From the IMG/VR virus record IMGVR_UViG_3300032242_002204, positions 1-20,759 of that record: a stretch of 20,759 bases of DNA, one strand, 5' to 3'. A program made the translations under genes and the position numbers. The notes beneath the pieces were generated by a model, which searched no databases, was not told the origin of the DNA, and worked only from the letters and a program-made list of their open reading frames with translations. The stretch's first letter is position 1. Each line of letters opens with the position of its first letter. Below, piece by piece: positions 2,878 through 19,948 of the stretch. This DNA is from a virus.

Positions 2878-2923
2878 GGTAGCTCCCCTGCCAGTGCCTA
2901 ATCGCTGGCTACCTCGCTTTTTT
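2878..2923 (+). terminator. Probable terminator or hairpin between reductase and endonuclease genes
   Basis: GGTAG (2878-2882) pairs with CTACC (2909-2913), and the inner CCAGT (2891-2895) pairs with GCTGG (2904-2908); an 8-base bulge lies on the 5' side. A run of six T follows (2918-2923) after CTCGC. This would end reductase transcripts. The large bulge makes it weaker than the one at 907-942. A GTG at 2894 lies inside it and is not the likely start of the next gene. Confidence 0.45.
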
Positions 2924-2938
2924 CTATTAGGAGATAAT

Positions 2939-3433
2939 ATGCACATTTGCACAAAATGTAGTAAACAAAAACCAAATTCAGAATTTAGTAAAAACAAAAC
3001 AAGAAAAACTGGGCGCAGCTCGTATTGTAAATCCTGTCATAAAGAATATGTAGCAAAACATTACCAAGAAAATAAAGAAACGTATCTTGAAAAAGCGGAC
3101 AATTGGAAAACAACAAACCCACAAAAGCGAAAGGATGTTGCTAATAAATACGCTAGAAATAATCCAGAAAAACAAAGAAATAACCATTTAAAAAGAGAAT
3201 ATGGTATAACGCTAGAAGAATTTAACAAAAAAGTTTTGTTACAAGAAAATAAATGTGTTATTTGTAATACTGTTTTTAAAAATATAAAAAACGCTTGCAT
3301 GGACCATTGCCACGAATCTAAAAAAGTTCGAGATGTTTTGTGTAGGACTTGTAACAGTGGTTTAGGACATTTTAAAGATTCTATACAAAATTTAAAATCT
3401 GCGATACAATATTTAATCAAACATCAAAGCTAG
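2939..3433 (+). CDS. Endonuclease VII-like HNH nuclease
   Basis: The 164-residue product resembles the recombination endonuclease VII family (T4 gp49-type, His-Me finger). Two zinc sites are visible: Cys4/Cys7/Cys30/Cys33 at the N-terminus and Cys106/Cys109 with Cys135/Cys138 around the active site. The catalytic segment CMDHCH (120-125) followed by VRDVLCRTCNSGLGHFKD matches the family, with Asp122, His123 and Asn139 equivalent to Asp40, His41 and Asn62 of T4 endonuclease VII. The middle (residues 37-88) is a Lys/Asn-rich helical spacer. ATG 2939 has AGGAG five bases upstream. The gene is clearly more AT-rich than its neighbours and sits between the reductase and polymerase, as mobile HNH genes often do. 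It may resolve branched replication intermediates or be a free-standing homing-type nuclease; the sequence does not decide. Confidence 0.85.
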   Translation: MHICTKCSKQKPNSEFSKNKTRKTGRSSYCKSCHKEYVAKHYQENKETYLEKADNWKTTNPQKRKDVANKYARNNPEKQRNNHLKREYGITLEEFNKKVLLQENKCVICNTVFKNIKNACMDHCHESKKVRDVLCRTCNSGLGHFKDSIQNLKSAIQYLIKHQS

Positions 3434-5404: not shown

Positions 5405-6640
5405 TTACTCTTGTGGTGTTTTTCTAATAAAACTGATGGTGTTATCTTCGTTAACTATTTTATCAAATCCAGTTTTTAAATTCATTTTAGCAGGAAAACT
5501 TAATTGTTTTACATGGCTTGGATCGCTAAAATAAATTTCACTTATTGCTTGTGGTGCAATAACATCCGTTTTGTATTCACGACCAGCTAAATCACCGGTT
5601 CCAGGTTTTATATTTTCGGCGCCACTTAAAGAATTTGGTCTAAATTTTACTTTAACCCCAACATTGTTTCCTTGACCTATTGCCAAATCTGCGTTGTTTG
5701 TTACATAAAGCGGATTGTAATCAAACTGCCTATCCATTCTTAAAATATCAGAAAGTTTAGATGGGTTTGTTTCGTGAAAAAGATGTGCATCTTGAGCCAC
5801 TAAATTAGGTTTTATTGATGCTAACCCCATTGGAAACGATTTTATGGAATCAACTCGAGGTAAATGTGAATATAAATTTTGAGCTAATTCAGTTAACGCA
5901 CCAACTTTACCACCTTTTGCTTTTTTTTCTTCAGCGGGGGCAAACTTGTCAATTAAATAGTTTGCTACAGGAGTGCCAAGTTGTAATCCTTTAGCAATTG
6001 TTTTAGCTTTACCTGGTAAATACTTTTCAACGTATGGAGCTATTGCAGCTAAGCCAGACGCAGTTGCTTGGACATCACCAAGCGGGCCTTGACCAGCGTG
6101 TTCAGCTACGTCCATTAAATTGTATCCGGATGTAAATGCTTTACCCGCGGGCTTAGTACGTAATCCTTGTAGGCCACTAACAATCTTTTCTTTTAAAGGA
6201 ATAGGCGGCTCAGGAGGAAGCACGCGTTCAAATCCAGGGTAACGTTTAGCCAACTCAGTATTACGCCGAATGATTTTGGCTTTTTCATTAATGGCATTGG
6301 CTGAACTAAACCAACGATCTTCTCCAGGAATAGGAGAAGGCGCGGGCTGTGCGGGCAATGCTTTATCAGCACCACCTAATATTTTTTTAAGTTTGTCTAT
6401 TCCCCATACCGCTGGAACACCAACGCCGTAACGCAAGCCAACTGCTTCTGCACCAGCACCAATGTTTGGTAAAACATCAGGACCTTGAGCTTCTTTAGTT
6501 TCTTGAGCAGCTGCAGCCTCACTAGCAGTAGGCATGAATCCAGAAGCGATTTCGTCTACTACTTTATGCTGCTCGTCCTCAGACATGTCCTTAAAACTAT
6601 CATCAACCTCAACCTGACGTCCATGAATCTCAATTTTCAT
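5405..6640 (-). CDS. Putative internal virion protein with ART-like C-terminal region
   Basis: This 411-residue protein is the last gene of the minus-strand virion block. The first 40 residues (IEIHGRQVEVDDSF then MSEDEQHKVVDEIASGF) look like the short N-terminal element found on several phage virion-associated proteins. The middle is Ala/Pro/Gly-rich with a KKAKGGKVGAL motif. From about residue 285 the pattern LFHET...LYVT...ADLAIGQG...VKVKFRP...GREY...VIAPQAISEI resembles the H-Y-E class of ADP-ribosyltransferase-like folds, with His289, Tyr312 and Glu355 as candidate key residues. Such a domain could be carried in the particle and enter the cell with the DNA. The start has only a weak AGGT about 9 bases upstream, within the end of the preceding gene; the gap between them is 2 bases. 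Function is inferred, and the ART match needs structural confirmation. Confidence 0.55.
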   Translation of the reverse strand: MKIEIHGRQVEVDDSFKDMSEDEQHKVVDEIASGFMPTASEAAAAQETKEAQGPDVLPNIGAGAEAVGLRYGVGVPAVWGIDKLKKILGGADKALPAQPAPSPIPGEDRWFSSANAINEKAKIIRRNTELAKRYPGFERVLPPEPPIPLKEKIVSGLQGLRTKPAGKAFTSGYNLMDVAEHAGQGPLGDVQATASGLAAIAPYVEKYLPGKAKTIAKGLQLGTPVANYLIDKFAPAEEKKAKGGKVGALTELAQNLYSHLPRVDSIKSFPMGLASIKPNLVAQDAHLFHETNPSKLSDILRMDRQFDYNPLYVTNNADLAIGQGNNVGVKVKFRPNSLSGAENIKPGTGDLAGREYKTDVIAPQAISEIYFSDPSHVKQLSFPAKMNLKTGFDKIVNEDNTISFIRKTPQE

Positions 6641-6642
6641 GA

Positions 6643-8526
6643 TTAAAGAACCTTATAGGGTACACCAGATTTAGTTTTCTTTTCGCCGGTAGGAGAAGGT
6701 AAAACATCAACACGTATACCAGGGTAACGGCTAGTTAAGAGATCGCGTTCATCCGCTATCATTTTTTCATATTCTGGCGTTGATAAAAACTTACCATAAG
6801 TTTTCATTGGATCATCGTTATGCCATTTTTCAAAAGCAGCATTCTTTTTAACTTCAAAATCAGCACCATCTTTTGCAATTTGTGCATAAAGTTTGTTAAC
6901 TTGTGGCAAATAGGCTTCACTAACACCTTTACCTTGTAAACCTAATTTTTCTAACCCAATACCAAGGCGAGCACCTTTAAACATTTGTTGAGTATATTCA
7001 ATACCAAGTTGTTTAGCATCTGTAGTTAAACCTTCACTAGCAGCCAGTAAATCTTTATCCCCGGCCCAAGCCACTTCCTTAACTTTTTCTTCAAATTTGT
7101 CGCCCTTACCAATTACGTCTGCTGCAAATGAAGGAATTGCACCTAAATAAGTGGCTGCTTTATTACCACCATGCATCCAACCCATCACTTTATTTAGCTT
7201 AGGATCATCTGCCAATTTAATAACACGATCGGCAGCTGCATTAGTAAGTATGGCACGTTCAGTATCTTTTTTCAACTGTGCTAAATCTTTACCAGTTTCT
7301 GTGGCAAAAGTAGTTGCTTCTTGTTTAGCAGCGTCAATAGGAATTGCTTTCTTTTGCTCATACAATTTCATAGCAGCATCGTATGCAACTTTGCTAGGAA
7401 AATCTCTTAATTGAGGTGCTTCATCCACAGCAGTTGCAGGTTTGGTAGTTTCAGCAGATGCTCGAGCAGTACCAAATACTTTAGGCAGATTTCCTTCTTG
7501 TTTAATAATAGCAGTACTGATAGCCTGACGAACAGCCGGGTTTGACAAATCAATTTTTTGATTAGGGTCAACACCAAGAAACTGAGCAGCATTTTTAATT
7601 AATGCAGGTGTATCATTTTCATTAGGAGGAGCCCATTTACCAATAACGCCAGCTAAAGTATTAATACCTTTATCACCGTATGATTTTAAATTGTTATCAA
7701 TACGTTCTAAATCTTTATCTATTGATACAGGGGGTTGAAAACCAGTACTTTGACCAACGGGTCGCATGTTACCCAGATTAGTGCCCGTAGGAGTTGTAGT
7801 AGAAACAGCCGCTTTAGGTACAACTTCACCGGAAGGTAATTTACCTGTGGCTTTAAATTCTAAATACTCATTTGGAGTTAGCATAACAACTCCCTCGCCA
7901 CCATTTTTACCAATACCCGAAATAGTGTAGGGCTCTTGTTTGTTACCAGCGGCTTCAAACTTTCCTTTTAAAGCAGCACCAAATTCGCTCTTAGCAGCTT
8001 CTCTAATGACCGCTAATCTGCCAGCGTAGTCATTAGGCGCAAGAGTATCTAACTCTGCCTTAACACTAGGATTGCTTGCAACTGTATTAATTTGTTGCAT
8101 GGTCAAGCCAGGAATAGGAGATGCTGCAGCAGCACCAGTAATTGGTGTAGTTGGTGTAGTTGCTGCGCCAGCTGGTGGGTTGACACTTTCATATTGTTGT
8201 TTCAGCAATTCTTGTTGTGCTTGAGCTGAACGCAAGGTTGCCATATCAGAACGCATTCTAAAAAGATCTTGCGCCTCTGCTATTCTTTGTTGATCACGTC
8301 TACGGATTCCTTCAGGACCTTCAGCAACTGAAGATGCGTCTTTTAAACCACCCAACACAAGACTCAATGGGCTTGAACGTTGGTTAACCATCTCCTGCAT
8401 TCTGGCTAATAGATCTGCACTCTGTGTGGGATCTAAGGGCACATTACCAGCGACTGTAAACCCACCCTTAGGGTTAGGTTTAACTTGTGCGCTTAACGGG
8501 GCTTGTTGTTCTTCTTGATCTGCCAT
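6643..8526 (-). CDS. Large internal virion/ejection-type structural protein
   Basis: A 627-residue, mostly helical, Gln/Ala/Lys-rich protein with no signal peptide or membrane segment. An N-terminal region (about 70-115) is Gln-rich and probably coiled coil, followed by an Ala/Thr/Pro linker. Around residues 282-343, TLAGVIGKWAPPNENDTP and GVDPNQKIDLSNPAVRQAIS followed by AIIKQEGN match a recurrent phage structural module (TI..II.RWAPPxENxT..YI..V, then GV.P...LDL.D) seen in internal or peptidoglycan-contacting virion proteins. The rest, including a Lys-rich C-terminus ending GEKKTKSGVPYKVL, I do not recognise. It lies between two other proteins with ejection-protein features, so delivery into the host with the DNA is a reasonable inference. 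There is no evident lysozyme catalytic motif. Spacing to the gene after it is 2 bases; the ribosome site is weak and A-rich. Confidence 0.6.
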   Translation of the reverse strand: MADQEEQQAPLSAQVKPNPKGGFTVAGNVPLDPTQSADLLARMQEMVNQRSSPLSLVLGGLKDASSVAEGPEGIRRRDQQRIAEAQDLFRMRSDMATLRSAQAQQELLKQQYESVNPPAGAATTPTTPITGAAAASPIPGLTMQQINTVASNPSVKAELDTLAPNDYAGRLAVIREAAKSEFGAALKGKFEAAGNKQEPYTISGIGKNGGEGVVMLTPNEYLEFKATGKLPSGEVVPKAAVSTTTPTGTNLGNMRPVGQSTGFQPPVSIDKDLERIDNNLKSYGDKGINTLAGVIGKWAPPNENDTPALIKNAAQFLGVDPNQKIDLSNPAVRQAISTAIIKQEGNLPKVFGTARASAETTKPATAVDEAPQLRDFPSKVAYDAAMKLYEQKKAIPIDAAKQEATTFATETGKDLAQLKKDTERAILTNAAADRVIKLADDPKLNKVMGWMHGGNKAATYLGAIPSFAADVIGKGDKFEEKVKEVAWAGDKDLLAASEGLTTDAKQLGIEYTQQMFKGARLGIGLEKLGLQGKGVSEAYLPQVNKLYAQIAKDGADFEVKKNAAFEKWHNDDPMKTYGKFLSTPEYEKMIADERDLLTSRYPGIRVDVLPSPTGEKKTKSGVPYKVL

Positions 8527-8540
8527 AATTATCTTTTAAT

Positions 8541-9479
8541 TTAATATAAATCTAGTATATTACCACTGGCATCGGTCATGGTTTGCCCATTTTCATCTTG
8601 CCAAGAACCATCGGGTTGCTGTGACCAACCGTTTTTAGAATAATCAACTTGTTGTTGTGTCATGTTTTTAGGTAATGGACTACTACTATCACCACCAAAT
8701 ATACTATCCCACAAACTAGAAATAGTCGTACCAGGTTTGATTTGATTTAAGAAAGCGTTTAAACCTGTCACACCACCTTGCAATGCACCACCAGCAGCAA
8801 TCAACTGGTTTAATGGGGATATTTGTTTAGAACTGGTTTCTGTTGTAGGTACGGAACCCATACCAGCAATGGTTTTTCCTAAACCAGATGCCGCAGCGTA
8901 CGGTGCTGCCATTTGTAAATTACTTAAATTGGTAGCGGTTGTGCCATACTGCGATCCAACGTTACCCATTGCAGAACCAGCTTGAACACCAGTCTGTTGA
9001 TTTTGTAACGCCGCTTGGTTTTGTTGTGCAAATAACTGAGCCTGAGCATCGGTTAGTGCTTTATCAGCAGCGGTTTGTGAACGTAAACTTCCAAATCCAC
9101 CAGCATTAATGCCCTGCGCATTTGGCTGAGCCATAATATTAGGGGCTAATTGTTGTAACTGTTGATTTTGTGCTTGAAACAAACCACCTAAAGCTGTACC
9201 AGTGTTGGGTGATACCTGACCAGTTGATTGATTTACAATCCACGGATTAGCAGCTCCAGAGGCAATCTGACCTAAAGTAGTTTGTGCTTGAGTAAACGGA
9301 TTTTGAGGGCCGTTAAGCTGATTAATGGCACCTTGGGCTGCTGTGTTTTGTATTTGAGGCACATTACCAGATGCATTAGTTGCCATGTTAACAACGTTTT
9401 GCTGTGCCGTGTTCATCCATGACGGCAGCGTCGTTGCTTTAGTTTCGGTATTTGCTATGAGGTTACTTAAGCCTGCCAT
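8541..9479 (-). CDS. Gln/Ala/Asn-rich internal virion or DNA-ejection protein
   Basis: This 312-residue protein is low in charge and rich in Gln, Asn, Ala, Gly and Thr. Residues from about 115 to 210 (FQAQNQQLQQL, SLRSQTAADKALTDAQAQL, AQQNQAALQNQQTGVQAGSA) resemble the internal core and ejection proteins of podovirus-like phages, which are amphipathic helical proteins that pass into the envelope. The C-terminal 60 residues contain a WSQQPDGSWQDENGQTM turn-rich segment that resembles small adhesive tails. It sits between the GDG-SD motif protein and the 627-residue protein, each separated by a few bases, so the three are probably co-translated. There is no signal peptide. A weak AAGAG ribosome site precedes the ATG. 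No catalytic motif is visible. Confidence 0.55.
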   Translation of the reverse strand: MAGLSNLIANTETKATTLPSWMNTAQQNVVNMATNASGNVPQIQNTAAQGAINQLNGPQNPFTQAQTTLGQIASGAANPWIVNQSTGQVSPNTGTALGGLFQAQNQQLQQLAPNIMAQPNAQGINAGGFGSLRSQTAADKALTDAQAQLFAQQNQAALQNQQTGVQAGSAMGNVGSQYGTTATNLSNLQMAAPYAAASGLGKTIAGMGSVPTTETSSKQISPLNQLIAAGGALQGGVTGLNAFLNQIKPGTTISSLWDSIFGGDSSSPLPKNMTQQQVDYSKNGWSQQPDGSWQDENGQTMTDASGNILDLY

Positions 9480-9481
9480 AA

Positions 9482-10597
9482 TTATGCTCTTTTCCGTGCT
9501 TGTGCCAAATAATCTAGTGGGCCTTTACTTTTTGGCGGTAGTTCATCTGGTTTATTACTGTGGTTATCTTCTCTAACAACTGATAAAAATTGATCTAATA
9601 CATGTGCTCCAGCATCGTTGCTGCCGTTACCTAATGCTGCTACAACGTCGGCGGGAACAACAAACTCGCCGTTTGCTAACATGGCGGCAACGTCATCTGA
9701 TGTGCCATCACCGTCACCTTGAACGTAACGGTTTTCCATACCGCCTTCGCTATAAAAAGATGGATTGTGTTCTTGGTATCCACCGCCCATAGCATAACCA
9801 CCAGCTGCAAATGGTTGTGGTTGGGGTTGTTGAGCAACTAAACTATTTAAGGCTGGATTTGTTGGAGCACCATAAAGTTCAGGATTAACTCTTGAAAGAA
9901 TATCTAATGAATAATTAGGGTTACTTGACGTAAGGCCTGGTGTAAGTTCCATGCCAGTACCAGAATCAGTGTCTGCACCAGCCATAGACAAACCACCTTG
10001 ACCAACAGGCTTAAATCCTTTTGACCCCATTAAAGCCTTAGTAGCCGGACCCAATAGGGTATTAAAGGCTGTTTTAGCAAGGCTAGATCCAATTTTTTTA
10101 GTTACTGGATTGTCTACTGCATCTTTCCAGTTAATTGGATCGGGAGGAGCGTCTGTGGAACTAATAGGATTACCATCTGCGTCTGTAGTAAGCGTCGATC
10201 CGTCGTCAAATGTTTGAGTTTTATTACCGGTTACTGGATCAGTTACTGTATCACTAGGGACATCGGTGGGAATATCGGTAGGAATATCGGTAGGAATATC
10301 AATGGGGATATCGGTAGGAATATCAATGGGGATATTTTTAGCAATTGTAACAGGGTCAAATCCAGCGTCTGTAAGGACAGTATCTGTTAGTCCTCCCTCA
10401 TCTGCCAACGCTAAAAGTTCAGGGTCATAAATACCAGCCGCCATAAGCGCTGCAGAACCTATTGTTTTCCAGCCTCCAGGAATAGCGCTATTTATTGTGC
10501 TGTCAATAGATGAACCAACATCACCAATTATTGGTCCAGGATCAATAGAAGATAACGCGTCACTTATTGAAGAAATTGGATCTGAGCCACCGCACAT
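9482..10597 (-). CDS. Phage virion-associated protein with GDG-SD / EFVVPADVV motif
   Basis: A 371-residue protein beginning MCGGSDP. Residues 89-116 are seven tandem tetrapeptides of the form IPTD/IPID. A Gly-rich stretch (AAGGYAMGGGYQ, then SEGGMEN) leads into a conserved C-terminal block at about 294-333: GDGDGTSDDVAAMLANGEF, VVPADVVAALGNGS and AGAHVLDQF. I have seen this block repeatedly in uncharacterised structural proteins of marine and freshwater tailed phages; its function is not known to me. The C-terminus is Lys/Arg/Pro-rich. There is no membrane segment beyond a moderately hydrophobic GSAALMAAGIY. The start has GGAAAA about 8 bases upstream. It opens the run of four putative internal or ejected proteins that follows the acetyltransferase gene, 2 bases after that gene's stop. 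Confidence 0.6.
   Translation of the reverse strand: MCGGSDPISSISDALSSIDPGPIIGDVGSSIDSTINSAIPGGWKTIGSAALMAAGIYDPELLALADEGGLTDTVLTDAGFDPVTIAKNIPIDIPTDIPIDIPTDIPTDIPTDVPSDTVTDPVTGNKTQTFDDGSTLTTDADGNPISSTDAPPDPINWKDAVDNPVTKKIGSSLAKTAFNTLLGPATKALMGSKGFKPVGQGGLSMAGADTDSGTGMELTPGLTSSNPNYSLDILSRVNPELYGAPTNPALNSLVAQQPQPQPFAAGGYAMGGGYQEHNPSFYSEGGMENRYVQGDGDGTSDDVAAMLANGEFVVPADVVAALGNGSNDAGAHVLDQFLSVVREDNHSNKPDELPPKSKGPLDYLAQARKRA
10250..10333. repeat. Seven tandem 12-bp repeats within the virion protein gene
   Basis: Seven 12-base units of the type ATCGGTAGGAAT or ATCAATGGGGAT run head to tail and encode (I/V)P(T/I/S)D tetrapeptides. Three units are ATCGGTAGGAAT and two are ATCAATGGGGAT, so the array has probably grown by unequal exchange or slippage of single units and of a two-unit block. 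A Pro every four residues with alternating Asp suggests an extended acidic linker. Confidence 0.9.
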
Positions 10598-11082: not shown

Positions 11083-11349
11083 TTATCTACTAGGACCGTT
11101 GATAATAGTAGTAAACTCCATAGCCCATTCCTGCCAAGTTGCATAGGTATCTGGATTTGGAACTGGGTAAGTGCCAAAAGTTTCAGACAAAACAATATTC
11201 ATTGCACCGTCTTTCCAGGTTTCTTCTGGTGAAAACTCAATATTCTTTTGGCCGTAATATATAGCCAACTCGCCATTCCAATCTTCCCAGCTCATGTAGT
11301 CCGGAAGACATGGAAAGAACGATTGAAAATTAGGGTCGTTCGTCGCCAT
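11083..11349 (-). CDS. Small acidic phage protein with duplicated Trp motif
   Basis: An 88-residue protein I cannot name. It holds two copies of one motif: LPDYMSWEDWNGEL near the N-terminus and NPDTYATWQEWAMEF near the C-terminus, both of form P-D-x-Y-x-S/T-W-x-D/E-W-x-x-E-L/F. It is acidic, Trp-rich and has no membrane segment. Its start overlaps the end of the nozzle-like gene by 20 bases, so translation is probably coupled and the protein is likely a virion or tail-assembly component. The stop is followed at once by a hairpin and the promoter-like element, which marks this as the last gene of that transcription unit. Confidence 0.7.
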   Translation of the reverse strand: MATNDPNFQSFFPCLPDYMSWEDWNGELAIYYGQKNIEFSPEETWKDGAMNIVLSETFGTYPVPNPDTYATWQEWAMEFTTIINGPSR

Positions 11350-13477
11350 ATTCTGCAGTAATTAAGTTACGACCCATCTCATAGTTGCCATCAATTGTAT
11401 TAGATTCAAACTTTAACCTAACCAATCTGTGTTCTACTCGAAGGTCAATTTTACCGGTATCTGGGCTAAAATAATACGGCCCAGAGGTTTCTTCAAAAGG
11501 ACCCGATGCAAATTTACGGCCCAGTATAGTCATAGCCATACTACCATTTTGTAAAAAGTTTGGCTCAACCCTGCGTAAATGCATACGGCGATTAATACCC
11601 TGTAAAGCATTTTGGCTTGGGTTACCAGTTAGCCAGCTAATATCACAAGTAGTAATGCTTGAGTATACTGCAAACTGACCCAGTAGATTAATCTCGTTAT
11701 AACCATATTCATGTTGCCAAATATTGTAGCCACCGGTAACATAAAATAACGTTCTACCAGCGGTTATTGGTCCTGGAAAATCTGTAGAGCAAGTGACTAA
11801 TGTTGCACCTTCTCCGCCAATAGCCGCGTTAAAAATAAACTGACTTGAAGTAATAAGGTATGTGTTATTTAAACTATTTTCAGAATTAAAACACAAAGAA
11901 TCACCAGGACTAAACAACGGTGTTTGGTCCCCCGCTAAATACAACTGATTTGCATTTGGAGCAGATTGCCCTGGGGGCGTAGCTATTGCAAAATGCGGTA
12001 CACTAAAAATAGGATTGTAGTTCCAGTCACACCAAATTGGTGTTGGAAACAATTCTGTTGTGTAACCACAAGAGCGTTGAGCCCCAACTGCTTGACCTGC
12101 GTCATACCACAGTTGATCTTTTACGTTATAGATAATAGCATCGGTACATTCAGTAGCGGTGCCTCTAGGATAAAAAAACCAAATCTCGTTGTAGCGCGGT
12201 ACTTTTGTAGCCCATACTTTTTGACGTTGAGCATAGTTTAAGTTGTCAAAAAGATAGTTTACGTTTTTATCATTGGGCAGCACTTTTACGCCACCGTTGT
12301 ATAGGTAAAACCGATCTACACCCATCCAGTAATAGATACTATCCATTTCTGCAATAGCATTAGATGACATAATAGAGATTTGGCTGGAAATAATATCGTA
12401 TGTCCAGTAAATACTAGTTGCCTGTGAATTAAAGGAAACACGAATTAAACTGTCAGTAGCCCAAAACAAACCAGATGGTGAACTAGTACCACCACGCATC
12501 GGCATCCCTTTAACTATTTTGGATGATGATACGTTAGTTTGGTTAGCAAACGTACCATTCCAATCGTAAAAGTTTCGATTAAGGTAGGTACTGCTTACGT
12601 TGTTGTTTGAAATAAAACCGTTTGATCCATACACAAAAATGAATGGATACAAAACACATACACCGCCGTCTACACTAATTGGCTGATAGGTAGGGTTTTG
12701 CCCTTCACTATCTGATAACCCAGTAAACGTCCAATGATAGTTATTGTTAGGGGTAATCTCTCCAACCAAAACCTGAGAGGTGACTCCGCTGTCAATGTTA
12801 GTTAAGTTTTTACCGGGGTGCGCAAAGATAGATAATGCGCCACCTTGCGGGCTAAACTGTGCATCAAACTGCCAAATATTACGATAAGGGCCATCAACTG
12901 GATCTGGGACAAATACAGGAACATTATCCAAATAAACTTTTGTAGGGCTTCCAACAATAGCGCCACCGATAACGTCTACAATAGTGCTATCCACAGTTAT
13001 TGTTACAACATCTACCGTATATACGGTAGCAGTATTACTTTGTTCAAATATAACTTTTGTGCCTACGGGAAATAGCGAACCTTTGTTTCCAGCAACGGTA
13101 AATGAAACAGTGGTATTAGATGTTATACTAACAAATGCTGTACCAGGTAATATTTCAGCAGTAAACGGCCCGCTTCCAGTACCGTAACTGGTGCTGGTGG
13201 TGTAAACATCTAGCTCTTTGTAATTGCCAGAAAAAATATAGTTTACACCGTTGTATGGCTGGGAAATTAAACCCCTTGCAATGCCTGTTAAACCAGTAAA
13301 CAAAGTACGATAGCCGCCAATTTTCTTTGGCTCACCACGTTGAAAACGACACCACACACCATCGGTGTATTGATCGTTTTGAAACTGTGTACCGTCACGC
13401 TTAATCCCAGCCGGAATTGCTAAGCTGTAGATTGAAGTATATTGTGAGGTATCTTGTTGCTGATTATCAGCGGCCAT
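11330..13477 (-). CDS. Tail nozzle / tail hub-like protein (gp10/gp12-type)
   Basis: A 715-residue beta-rich protein. The N-terminus (YSLAIPAGIKRDGTQFQNDQ, then YTDGVWCRFQRGEPKKIGGYR) and the following ARGLISQPYNGVNYIFSGNYKELDVY are typical of proteins that form the distal nozzle of short-tailed phages, broadly equivalent to P22 gp10 or T7 gp12. The C-terminal LRRVEPNF...LGRKF...KIDLRVEHRLVRLKFES and GNYEMGRNLITAEYGDERP fit the same family. The ring would close the tail tip and hold fibres. It follows directly on the fibre-like gene (its ATG comes straight after that gene's TAA) and overlaps the 88-residue gene. Ser/Thr/Asn/Tyr content is high, as usual for virion beta proteins. The exact family is not certain without a profile search. 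Confidence 0.65.
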   Translation of the reverse strand: MAADNQQQDTSQYTSIYSLAIPAGIKRDGTQFQNDQYTDGVWCRFQRGEPKKIGGYRTLFTGLTGIARGLISQPYNGVNYIFSGNYKELDVYTTSTSYGTGSGPFTAEILPGTAFVSITSNTTVSFTVAGNKGSLFPVGTKVIFEQSNTATVYTVDVVTITVDSTIVDVIGGAIVGSPTKVYLDNVPVFVPDPVDGPYRNIWQFDAQFSPQGGALSIFAHPGKNLTNIDSGVTSQVLVGEITPNNNYHWTFTGLSDSEGQNPTYQPISVDGGVCVLYPFIFVYGSNGFISNNNVSSTYLNRNFYDWNGTFANQTNVSSSKIVKGMPMRGGTSSPSGLFWATDSLIRVSFNSQATSIYWTYDIISSQISIMSSNAIAEMDSIYYWMGVDRFYLYNGGVKVLPNDKNVNYLFDNLNYAQRQKVWATKVPRYNEIWFFYPRGTATECTDAIIYNVKDQLWYDAGQAVGAQRSCGYTTELFPTPIWCDWNYNPIFSVPHFAIATPPGQSAPNANQLYLAGDQTPLFSPGDSLCFNSENSLNNTYLITSSQFIFNAAIGGEGATLVTCSTDFPGPITAGRTLFYVTGGYNIWQHEYGYNEINLLGQFAVYSSITTCDISWLTGNPSQNALQGINRRMHLRRVEPNFLQNGSMAMTILGRKFASGPFEETSGPYYFSPDTGKIDLRVEHRLVRLKFESNTIDGNYEMGRNLITAEYGDERP

Positions 13478-16454: not shown

Positions 16455-16622
16455 TTACCTTCCGCGGCCAGCGGCTCGCTTCATTACTTTTTGAGGCAGG
16501 TTGGGTTGTGCTTTGCCAGCTTTGATAAACTCTTTGCCAACCTTTTTAGGAATGCCCAAAGTAGATTTACCAGCGGCTGCGGCGTACATTGCCTTTTGTT
16601 GTTGTTCTGATTTGATTGGCAT
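16455..16622 (-). CDS. Small basic conserved phage protein (55 aa)
   Basis: A 55-codon gene running from ATG at 16620-16622 to TAA at 16455-16457. The product [20 protein letters not shown] continues with [20 protein letters not shown] and ends in a basic GRGR tail. It resembles the many short phage proteins with a start like MPxKSxxQQRxM, akin in style to DUF3008, whose function is unknown. Its ATG shares one base with the stop of the upstream gene (TAATG), and it ends 2 bases before the next start, so it is certainly placed as a gene in the operon. The strong positive charge suggests nucleic-acid contact or a minor head role, by inference. Confidence 0.8.
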
Positions 16623-17338
16623 TATGAGCAAGTCCCACCAGTCATCATCTTTTTAACTTTGCCACCACTGCGCTTGTATCCCATGTTGTTACGCACATTA
16701 GTAGGTAATTTGGCTAAACCTGGGTTTTCTTCTGCATCAACGTCTTTTAAAGAACCGCCTTGATTCATTTTCTTAGCTTTTCCACCAAGCATTTTAGCCG
16801 TTTTAGAACCCTCTGTTGCTTGTTTATCTAAAGTTTCTTGACCAATACGGTTTTGCTCTGGTGTGCCAATAATATTCTCTTTAATGCTTTTAGCAAAATC
16901 TTGAACACCCTTACTAATTTTAGCGCCCATACTTGGTTTTTCAGATTCAACATAACTGCCGTCTTCGCCGTTATATTTCTTTACCGATTTACCACCGCAC
17001 AACATTGCTGGTTTAAACTTTTTTGCTTTATCAATACTCTTAATATCGGCATTGGTTTTCTTAGCGCCGTATACGCCGCCACCAGTGCTATACTTGCGCA
17101 CGGTGCCGCAATCTTTCTTAGCGCGACCGCCTTTACGCAATTTGGATAGGTCAGTCTTTTCACCCGGGTGCTCTTGTTTGTCATGCATGGCAAATGCCTT
17201 TTTGACAATCTTTTTGTCTTGGGCCACGTCTTCGCTCATTTCAGCTTTTTCAGAGTGACGTGACTTATAAACAGCACCACCTTTTTTATAGCATGGCAAG
17301 TTTTTTACCATCTTTAAGTTTGTTTTAAAGCCTTCCAT
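16622..17338 (-). CDS. Lys/Gly-rich protein with repeated KGG-type motifs
   Basis: A 238-residue, highly basic protein without a recognised enzymatic domain. At least seven Gly-Gly motifs flanked by Lys or hydrophobics are spread along it: [50 protein letters not shown] and [12 protein letters not shown]. An N-terminal [20 protein letters not shown], then [20 protein letters not shown], resembles a recurrent protein of aquatic short-tailed phages of unknown function. It may bind DNA or line the inside of the head. It is the first gene after the lysozyme terminator and promoter-like element, with a good AAGGA ribosome site, so it starts the structural transcription unit. Confidence 0.65.
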
Positions 17339-18702: not shown

Positions 18703-18872
18703 TATTGTATCTTAGCTACAATCGCAATCAGGGTGACAATAATAAAACCTGCAGAACCAATGAGTATCTGCTCTAGACGTTTTAGTCTGGCACAGATAGC
18801 ATCATAGCGTACTTCACAGATTCGCTCATGGGCAGATAGAGCTGCCTCGTTTTTATCAATAAATTCGGACAT
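18702..18872 (-). CDS. 56-aa coiled-coil/C-TM lysis-cassette protein
   Basis: A 56-codon gene from ATG at 18870-18872 to TAA at 18702-18704. The product starts MSEFIDKNEAALSAHERICE, has a basic coiled-coil stretch (YDAICARLKRLEQIL) and ends in a TM segment, GSAGFIIVTLIAIVAKIQ. It thus has the opposite order (coil, then TM) to the 50-residue protein on the other side of the holin gene. The layout resembles XhlA family proteins that partner holins. The start overlaps the S74 fibre stop and the stop overlaps the holin start, each as TAATG. Confidence 0.8.
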   Translation of the reverse strand: MSEFIDKNEAALSAHERICEVRYDAICARLKRLEQILIGSAGFIIVTLIAIVAKIQ

Positions 18873-19948
18873 TATTTAGTGGCTTTTAGAATTGCAATTT
18901 CTGCAGAGAGTTCTTGAACTGATTTAACTAACAGATAAATTAATTCAGTGTTATCAAATGTTTTTAAATCTGTTCTTTCTGTATCCCCAGGATTTAATTT
19001 AGTTGGAATTGTTTTGACGCTATTTGGTAATATTTTTGCAACATCATCCGCAATAACACCCAAACCTTTTTGACCTTCTTGTGTATTTCCAAGACCGTTA
19101 AACTCAAAGTTTTTAATCTCAATTTGATTTAATTCAGCCAAACCTTTTTCATATGGGGTAATGTTTCTTTTAATACGAGAATCAGAATAAATAACCCAAG
19201 AAGTACTTGAACCACCTTTATAGCAAGTATAAGCTTGAGCATACATAGCAAGGCTTGCGCCAGTGGTGTTAGATATGTAAAGTCCAGAACCACCATCAGT
19301 TATCATTGCAAGACCAGGATTGCCGTCAAAACTTGAATCTGTATATGTAACGCCATAACCAGCGTGTCCCAACTGCAATGCTCCTGCCCCTAAACCACCG
19401 CTGTAACTAGTATATGTAACGGTAAATTTTTGATCTCCTACAGAGCCAGCGCCAGTTGCACCAAACGACGTTGCATTTATATACCCGCCATTATTAGTAT
19501 TTAATTTAGCCAAACCTGCGGTTGCGGGTGATTGAGAAACAAAACTTGATCCGTTGGAAACAAGTATATTACCAGCGGTTCCAGCTGCAGGAACCCCGTT
19601 ACCACTATAACCAGATTGACCGGATTGACCAGAGTAACCACTAAAGCTGCTGTAACCACTGTATCCGGAGTAACCACTACTACCGCCAGGAGCGCCACTG
19701 CGACCAGAATAGCCTGAGTAGCCAGAAAAGCCACTTACTCCAGAATAGCCTGAGTAGCCAGAAAAGCCGCTATTGCTACCACTACTACCCCGAATGGATG
19801 CTACGTTACCAGCTGCGTCTTTGTAGTACAAGACACCATCGGCGGTGTTGATTGACAACTCACCAGGGATTAAATTGGCGGCCACTGGCACCGCGCTAGG
19901 TACGTTGCTGTGGTATAGCTGTAGTGTGGTGTATCCCGAACTTGCCAT
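18872..19948 (-). CDS. Tail fibre with collagen-like repeats and S74 self-cleaving chaperone
   Basis: A 358-residue fibre. Residues 1-53 (LIPGELSINTADGVLYYKDA) match the short N-terminal module that attaches fibres to the particle. Residues about 55-115 are Gly-x-Ser repeats (GYSGYSGVSGFSG and similar), a collagen-like trimeric shaft. After a beta-rich tip region, residues 255-358 are an intramolecular chaperone, peptidase S74: Ser255 and Lys260 of SDSRIKRNI are the expected Ser-Lys dyad, and the end contains GLGVIADDVAKILP and an ELIYLLVKSVQELSAEI coiled coil. The chaperone trimerises the fibre, then cuts itself off before Ser255. The tip (about 130-254) presumably binds the host receptor. 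The gene follows the accessory gene by 4 bases and overlaps the 56-residue gene. Confidence 0.9.
   Translation of the reverse strand: MASSGYTTLQLYHSNVPSAVPVAANLIPGELSINTADGVLYYKDAAGNVASIRGSSGSNSGFSGYSGYSGVSGFSGYSGYSGRSGAPGGSSGYSGYSGYSSFSGYSGQSGQSGYSGNGVPAAGTAGNILVSNGSSFVSQSPATAGLAKLNTNNGGYINATSFGATGAGSVGDQKFTVTYTSYSGGLGAGALQLGHAGYGVTYTDSSFDGNPGLAMITDGGSGLYISNTTGASLAMYAQAYTCYKGGSSTSWVIYSDSRIKRNITPYEKGLAELNQIEIKNFEFNGLGNTQEGQKGLGVIADDVAKILPNSVKTIPTKLNPGDTERTDLKTFDNTELIYLLVKSVQELSAEIAILKATK
19704..19768. repeat. Direct repeat in the collagen-like shaft (36-bp period)
   Basis: A 29-base sequence is present exactly twice, at 19704-19732 and 19740-19768, 36 bases apart. It encodes the 12-residue units GFSGYSGYSGVS and GFSGYSGYSGRS. 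Such perfect duplication in a shaft region is a likely site of length change by slippage or recombination. Confidence 0.9.

What the first reader, a model, noticed from the sequence alone, without database searches (positions are those of the whole stretch)
5405..5800. Possible ADP-ribosyltransferase-like domain at the end of a putative ejected virion protein
Residues about 285-375 show the order LFHET, LYVT, ADLAIGQG, GREY, IAPQAISEI, as in ART-fold enzymes with an H-Y-E set (His289, Tyr312, Glu355). A virion protein with such a domain could act on host targets at the moment of DNA entry, as T4 Alt does. The N-terminal element and KGGKV motif support a virion origin.
Basis: inference. Interest (0 to 1): 0.6.

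Follow-up and report, generated by a model that had tools for sequence, protein, structure and literature searches.

The report
Injected phage protein with ADP-ribosyltransferase domain
A phage protein that is probably injected into the bacterium with the viral DNA ends in a small swappable domain with the fold and catalytic glutamate of enzymes that attach ADP-ribose to other molecules; it belongs to a small family that the databases searched here do not describe.

Summary
In detail: the 411-aa ORF at 5405-6640(-) carries all quoted motifs at the stated residues. The last ~150 residues are a real domain with 12 homologues in other phages and proviruses and no Pfam, NCBIfam or PDB sequence match. 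AlphaFold2 gives a confident model (pLDDT 88.8). A trimmed model of a relative finds ART-fold proteins as its first 29 PDB hits (Tpt1/KptA, probability up to 0.99; RhsP2 toxin; diphtheria toxin; CC0527). Glu355 is invariant (13/13) and residue 312 is always Tyr or Phe. His289 is NOT conserved: Arg in 10 of 13, His only here and in the nearest relative, Thr in one. The family signature is [R/H]-[F/Y]-E, not H-Y-E. Virion delivery is well supported by context: the gene is last in an ejection cassette, two bases after a gene with a T7 internal-virion-protein-D-like segment; in most relatives the domain sits in large polyvalent proteins. Phages sharing residues 1-249 (65-81% identity) carry other cargo after that point, including ART-PolyVal-like regions. 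Best reading: an exchangeable ART warhead on an ejected protein. Activity and target are untested.

The parts
5405..6640 (-). Gene for the 411-aa putative ejected protein
   Evidence: Open frame, 81% identity over residues 1-253 to L002 and 64% over 238-411 to L012
6521..6640 (-). N-terminal ~40-residue element (residues 1-40)
   Evidence: Shared with gp21 'structural protein' of Paracoccus phage KLEP18-1 (52%, E 2e-4) and weakly with a 'structural protein' of Rhizobium phage RHph_N3_2 (E 0.09)
5894..6640 (-). Carrier part, residues 1-249, conserved in four related viral contigs whose downstream parts differ
   Evidence: 65-81% identity up to about residue 249, none after
5903..5917 (-). KGGKV stretch (residues 242-246) at the junction of carrier and cargo
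   Evidence: GG stretches at module junctions of relatives
5405..5863 (-). ART-fold cargo domain, residues about 260-411 (with stop)
   Evidence: 13-member alignment A3, AlphaFold2 pLDDT 88.8 pTM 0.85, Foldseek
5774..5776 (-). His289 in the first strand of the ART core; Arg in most relatives
   Evidence: R 10, H 2, T 1; strand 287-291
5705..5707 (-). Tyr312, start of the second strand; aromatic in all members
   Evidence: F 9, Y 4; strand 312-314
5669..5677 (-). Invariant Gly322-Gln323-Gly324
   Evidence: 13 of 13
5576..5578 (-). Glu355, presumed catalytic glutamate, first residue of a strand, followed by invariant Tyr356
   Evidence: E 13 of 13; strand 355-361
6643..8526 (-). Upstream ejection-cassette gene with a T7 internal-virion-protein-D-like segment (residues ~250-356)
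   Evidence: tblastn to 382 phage records; PHROG ejection/transglycosylase families
8541..9479 (-). Probable further ejection-cassette gene, by position relative to KLEP18-1 gp19-gp21
   Evidence: gene order; no direct sequence match
9482..10597 (-). Further gene of the same cassette with a tape-measure-like C-terminal motif
   Evidence: PHROG tail length tape measure families, E 5e-5
11330..13477 (-). Nozzle/stabilization-type virion protein upstream of the cassette
   Evidence: phrog_3287 E 5e-23, which also matches the KLEP18-1 nozzle gene gp16; phage stabilization protein hits

Best explanation
The gene encodes the last protein of a podovirus-type ejection cassette. Its N-terminal ~250 residues are the carrier that rides in the virion, and its C-terminal ~150 residues are an exchangeable enzymatic cargo with the ADP-ribosyltransferase fold. 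On DNA entry the protein would be ejected into the host. There the domain would bind NAD+, with residue 289 (R/H) and the aromatic residue 312 lining the pocket and Glu355 assisting the loss of nicotinamide, and transfer ADP-ribose to a host molecule during takeover. Shown by computation: homology, fold, invariance of Glu355, cassette context, module exchange. Inferred: packaging, injection, enzymatic activity. Unknown: the target, protein or nucleic acid.
For: 13-member family with invariant Glu355 and aromatic 312; confident AlphaFold2 model with strands in the order expected of an ART core; first 29 PDB hits of the trimmed relative are ART-fold proteins; viral-library hits include a PARP-like phage G protein, DarT and Tpt1/KptA; ejection-cassette context here, in KLEP18-1 and in BA3; domain embedded in polyvalent proteins elsewhere; different cargo after a shared carrier and a GC drop at the junction.
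Against: Position 289 is not conserved. No sequence or profile match to any known ART; HHalign to three ART families stayed within shuffled controls. Foldseek E-values are modest (best PDB hit 0.026). No coordinates were available, so the three residues could not be shown to line one pocket. No virion proteomics.
Confidence: 0.62

Rival explanations
1. The domain has the ART fold and uses NAD+, but its substrate is nucleic acid (RNA or DNA), or it only hydrolyses NAD+, rather than modifying host proteins as T4 Alt does.
For: The nearest solved folds are Tpt1/KptA, which act on RNA or DNA, and the RhsP2 toxin domain (RhsP2's action on RNA is own knowledge). DarT, a DNA modifier, is among the viral hits.
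Against: Fold proximity does not predict substrate, and Tpt1/KptA belong to a clade (H-H-h) without the catalytic Glu that is invariant here (for the clade definition). The known injected phage ART, Alt, modifies proteins.
Confidence: 0.35
2. The domain keeps the ART fold but is not an active transferase; it serves as a binding or structural module of the virion protein.
For: First active-site position is variable (Arg, His, Thr), unusual for an active enzyme family.
Against: Glu355, the aromatic at 312 and surrounding Gly/Gln/Asn residues are invariant across proteins of very different architecture; purifying selection; Arg and His are each used at that position by active ARTs of different clades.
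Confidence: 0.17
3. The domain is not ART-like at all; it is a virion-specific fold whose motifs resemble ARTs by chance.
For: No sequence-family match at all; modest Foldseek scores.
Against: An unbroken run of 29 ART-fold PDB hits for one model and ART hits in two libraries for the other; conserved residues at the expected strand positions; presence as one of many exchangeable domains in polyvalent proteins.
Confidence: 0.08

Closest known systems
ART-PolyVal (PF18760), H-Y-D 'Tox-ART-HYD2' ARTs of polyvalent proteins (PMC5512222)
   Same: ART domain carried by presumed injected phage proteins; found in the same polypeptide as our domain in L010, L012, L015 and L016
   Different: No match of our domain to the PF18760 model; Glu instead of Asp at the third position, Arg/His at the first
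T4 Alt (Alt/VIP2 family, R-S-E clade)
   Same: Presumed virion-borne ART delivered with DNA; most relatives of our domain have Arg and Glu at positions 1 and 3
   Different: No detectable sequence relation; Phe/Tyr rather than Ser at position 2; R-S-E Alt-type ARTs are reported absent from genuine polyvalent proteins
Tpt1/KptA RNA 2'-phosphotransferases
   Same: Best solved-structure match, probability up to 0.99
   Different: H-H-h active site without the catalytic Glu; no significant profile match
Thalassomonas phage BA3 giant protein BA3_0002
   Same: True homologue of the domain (35% identity, E 1e-14), encoded after a DNA-ejection-family gene
   Different: Domain lies inside a 2631-aa protein with methyltransferase and LPD38 domains; Arg at position 1

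Membership tests
ADP-ribosyltransferase (ART) superfamily | ART fold (split beta sheet with the catalytic residues on strands 1, 2 and 5) | tested here: met
   AlphaFold2 models and Foldseek; modest scores but consistent
ADP-ribosyltransferase (ART) superfamily | Catalytic glutamate at the start of the fifth core strand | tested here: met
   Glu355, 13 of 13, first residue of strand 355-361
ADP-ribosyltransferase (ART) superfamily | NAD+ binding and ADP-ribose transfer | not testable with these tools
   needs a biochemical assay
H-Y-E clade of ARTs | Conserved His (strand 1), Tyr (strand 2), Glu (strand 5) | tested here: not met
   His in 2 of 13 at the first position; Tyr 4 and Phe 9 at the second; Glu 13 of 13
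R-S-E clade of ARTs | Conserved Arg, Ser, Glu | tested here: inconclusive
   Arg in 10 of 13 but His in the window; Thr/Ser lies two residues after the aromatic (T 9, S 4); Glu 13 of 13; which of 312 or 314 is the true second position could not be measured without coordinates
ART-PolyVal (PF18760) | Match to the Pfam model | tested here: not met
   No hit for any of the 13 members at E up to 10; none in the window record
Ejected virion (polyvalent-type) protein | Encoded in the ejection-protein cassette | tested here: met
   Two nt after a gene with a T7 internal-virion-protein-D-like segment; order shared with KLEP18-1, whose gp19 matches a DNA ejection family and whose gp21 shares the N-terminus
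Ejected virion (polyvalent-type) protein | Several different enzymatic domains in one polypeptide | tested here: not met
   The window protein shows one recognisable cargo domain; most relatives of the domain do sit in multidomain proteins
Ejected virion (polyvalent-type) protein | Present in the virion and transferred to the host | not testable with these tools
   needs virion proteomics and a translocation assay

The most novel reading that the evidence does not exclude
A previously unlisted ART family, confined to phage ejection and polyvalent proteins, whose first active-site residue has switched between Arg and His within the family, so that one family spans the signatures used to separate the H-Y-E and R-S-E clades; it occupies an effector-exchange site at the end of the ejection cassette, where related phages swap ART types.
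Probability: 0.4. Interest if true: 0.6.

Novelty: new variant of a known kind. Interest (0 to 1): 0.45.

Why it matters
Injected ARTs are among the first enzymes some phages use on a host. Published surveys list the H-Y-D type as the ART of polyvalent proteins and report that Alt-type R-S-E ARTs are absent from genuine ones (PMC5512222). This family appears to be another type, small (13 members found in the collections searched), and in the window's phage group it sits at a C-terminal site where related phages hold different cargo. That gives a defined comparison for asking what injected ARTs modify, and whether the natural Arg/His difference goes with a different target.

Tried and rejected
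Pfam, NCBIfam and PDB sequence searches with the protein or its 13-member alignment gave no family. The PHROG hit phrog_15406 'DNA methyltransferase' (12 members) probably reflects the BA3 giant protein inside that family, not a methyltransferase in this domain. HHalign against DarT, KptA and ART-PolyVal stayed within column-shuffled controls; the alignments were small, DarT against KptA itself reached only 15% probability, and the ART-PolyVal set held one row in a wrong frame, so this test is inconclusive rather than negative. A further profile scan of viral contigs and scans of about 790 whole genomes from the orders of the two cellular records found no further members. A BECR-type nuclease fold, also known from polyvalent proteins, was considered and dropped because the models match ART folds. 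Plasmids: nothing. No paper on KLEP18-1 was found that would say whether its 'structural protein' labels rest on mass spectrometry. One contig-end member (L017) is truncated upstream, so its architecture is unknown.

Full report
OBSERVATION. The ORF at 5405-6640(-) has 411 codons. All quoted motifs are present and residues 289, 312 and 355 are His, Tyr and Glu. The gene begins 2 nt after the stop of the 627-aa gene upstream, and its stop codon directly abuts that of the convergent DNA polymerase A gene.

THE DOMAIN IS REAL. The C-terminal region alone matches Thalassomonas phage BA3 (35%, E 1e-14). Iterating with small alignments brought homologues from viral contigs, a Burkholderiales MAG and a Marinobacter genome. 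The 13-row alignment A3 has invariant Gly272, Glu290, Thr291, Val313, Leu319-Ala320, Gly322-Gln323-Gly324, Asn326, Gly328, Phe333, Gly340, Lys345, Gly353, Glu355, Tyr356 and Arg406-Lys407. Between the window and L012 (64-65% identity) third codon positions change most, 77 against 46 and 28, as expected for a protein under selection.

FOLD. AlphaFold2 on A3 gives pLDDT 88.8 and pTM 0.85, with strands at 287-291, 312-314, 329-333, 338-342, 355-361 and 366-371 and helices after the first two. In the PDB the first hit is diphtheria toxin, weakly, among noise. In the viral library, after the BA3 homologue, come an unnamed protein (A0A4D6BGP0, probability 1.00) and Bacillus phage G gp336 (0.99), and lower down DarT and Tpt1/KptA. 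Gp336 itself weakly matches Pfam PARP (E 0.021, below the curated cut-off). A second model, of the trimmed core of an Arg-type relative (L016; pLDDT 80.4), has the same order of strands. Its first 29 PDB hits are Tpt1/KptA, the RhsP2 toxin domain, diphtheria toxin and CC0527, all ART-fold proteins (the fold assignment of RhsP2 and CC0527 is own knowledge). Single scores are modest (best E 0.026), but their consistency makes the ART fold likely.

ACTIVE SITE. Glu355 is invariant and opens a strand. Position 312 is Phe (9) or Tyr (4), followed by Val and Thr/Ser. Position 289 is Arg (10), His (2: window and L012) or Thr (1). Window and L012 form a fully supported pair (100/99), so His may be one derived change, but most of the tree is unresolved.

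CONTEXT. The upstream gene's residues ~250-356 match T7-like internal virion protein D among 382 phage records and PHROG endolysin, injection-transglycosylase and tape-measure families. The order nozzle, hypothetical, GNAT-like, then large structural genes is shared with Paracoccus phage KLEP18-1; gp19 there matches a DNA ejection family and gp21 shares our N-terminal ~40 residues. In BA3 the domain is in the giant protein two genes after a DNA-ejection-family gene. The other carriers of the domain are mostly 1700-3800-aa proteins, several with LPD38, LPD1, LPD5, ddrB-ParB, methyltransferase or ART-PolyVal domains, i.e. polyvalent proteins, proposed to be injected with the DNA (PMC5512222).

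MODULE EXCHANGE. Three viral contigs share residues 1-246 at 65% and one at 81%, then diverge. L002 and L005 continue, in the same or the next gene, into a region 42-46% identical to the ART-PolyVal-bearing part of L012; those two fall below Pfam's threshold themselves, so their ART assignment rests on that similarity. L012 has ART-PolyVal followed by our domain. The window has our domain alone. GC content drops from 44% in residues 1-249 to 33% after, and L012's domain is likewise AT-richer (39% against 50%) than the rest of its gene. This is what swapping of a cargo module at a fixed site would leave.

MECHANISM. Shown by computation: homology, fold, conserved acid, cassette position, exchange. 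Inferred: packaging, ejection, NAD+ chemistry. Unknown: target. The published model for injected ARTs is T4 Alt acting on host RNA polymerase. The nearest solved folds act on nucleic acid, so such a target stays open.

NOVELTY. Injected ARTs in polyvalent proteins are known, with an H-Y-D site, while R-S-E Alt-type ARTs are reported absent from genuine polyvalent proteins (PMC5512222). No Pfam, NCBIfam or PDB entry covers this family. It is a new variant of a known kind. Whether other databases not searched here already list it is not known.

Noticed in passing
L002:5001-8441, L005:6995-9688, L012:1-2316: The terminal genes of related phages share a second, ~250-residue module after the ART-PolyVal-like region (42-46% identity across L002, L005 and L012) that has no Pfam match; the window lacks it.
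   Followed up: partly
window 9482-10597(-): Residues about 282-324 match the C-terminal motif of tape measure proteins although the phage looks like a podovirus; the same motif is in L002 and L005.
   Followed up: no
window 16622-17338(-): Lys/Gly-rich 238-aa protein with repeated GG-K stretches and no PHROG match.
   Followed up: no
window 18872-19948(-): Tail-fibre-like protein with many SGYSG repeats and, by eye, a C-terminal intramolecular-chaperone-like end.
   Followed up: no
L034:5995-6468 (Bacillus phage G gp336): Hypothetical protein that weakly matches Pfam PARP (E 0.021) and resembles our model's fold; possibly one of phage G's ARTs.
   Followed up: partly
window 2894-3433(+): A small cysteine-rich gene between the reductase-like gene and the DNA polymerase gene resembles an HNH/endonuclease VII-type nuclease by eye; L012 has one in the same place.
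   Followed up: no
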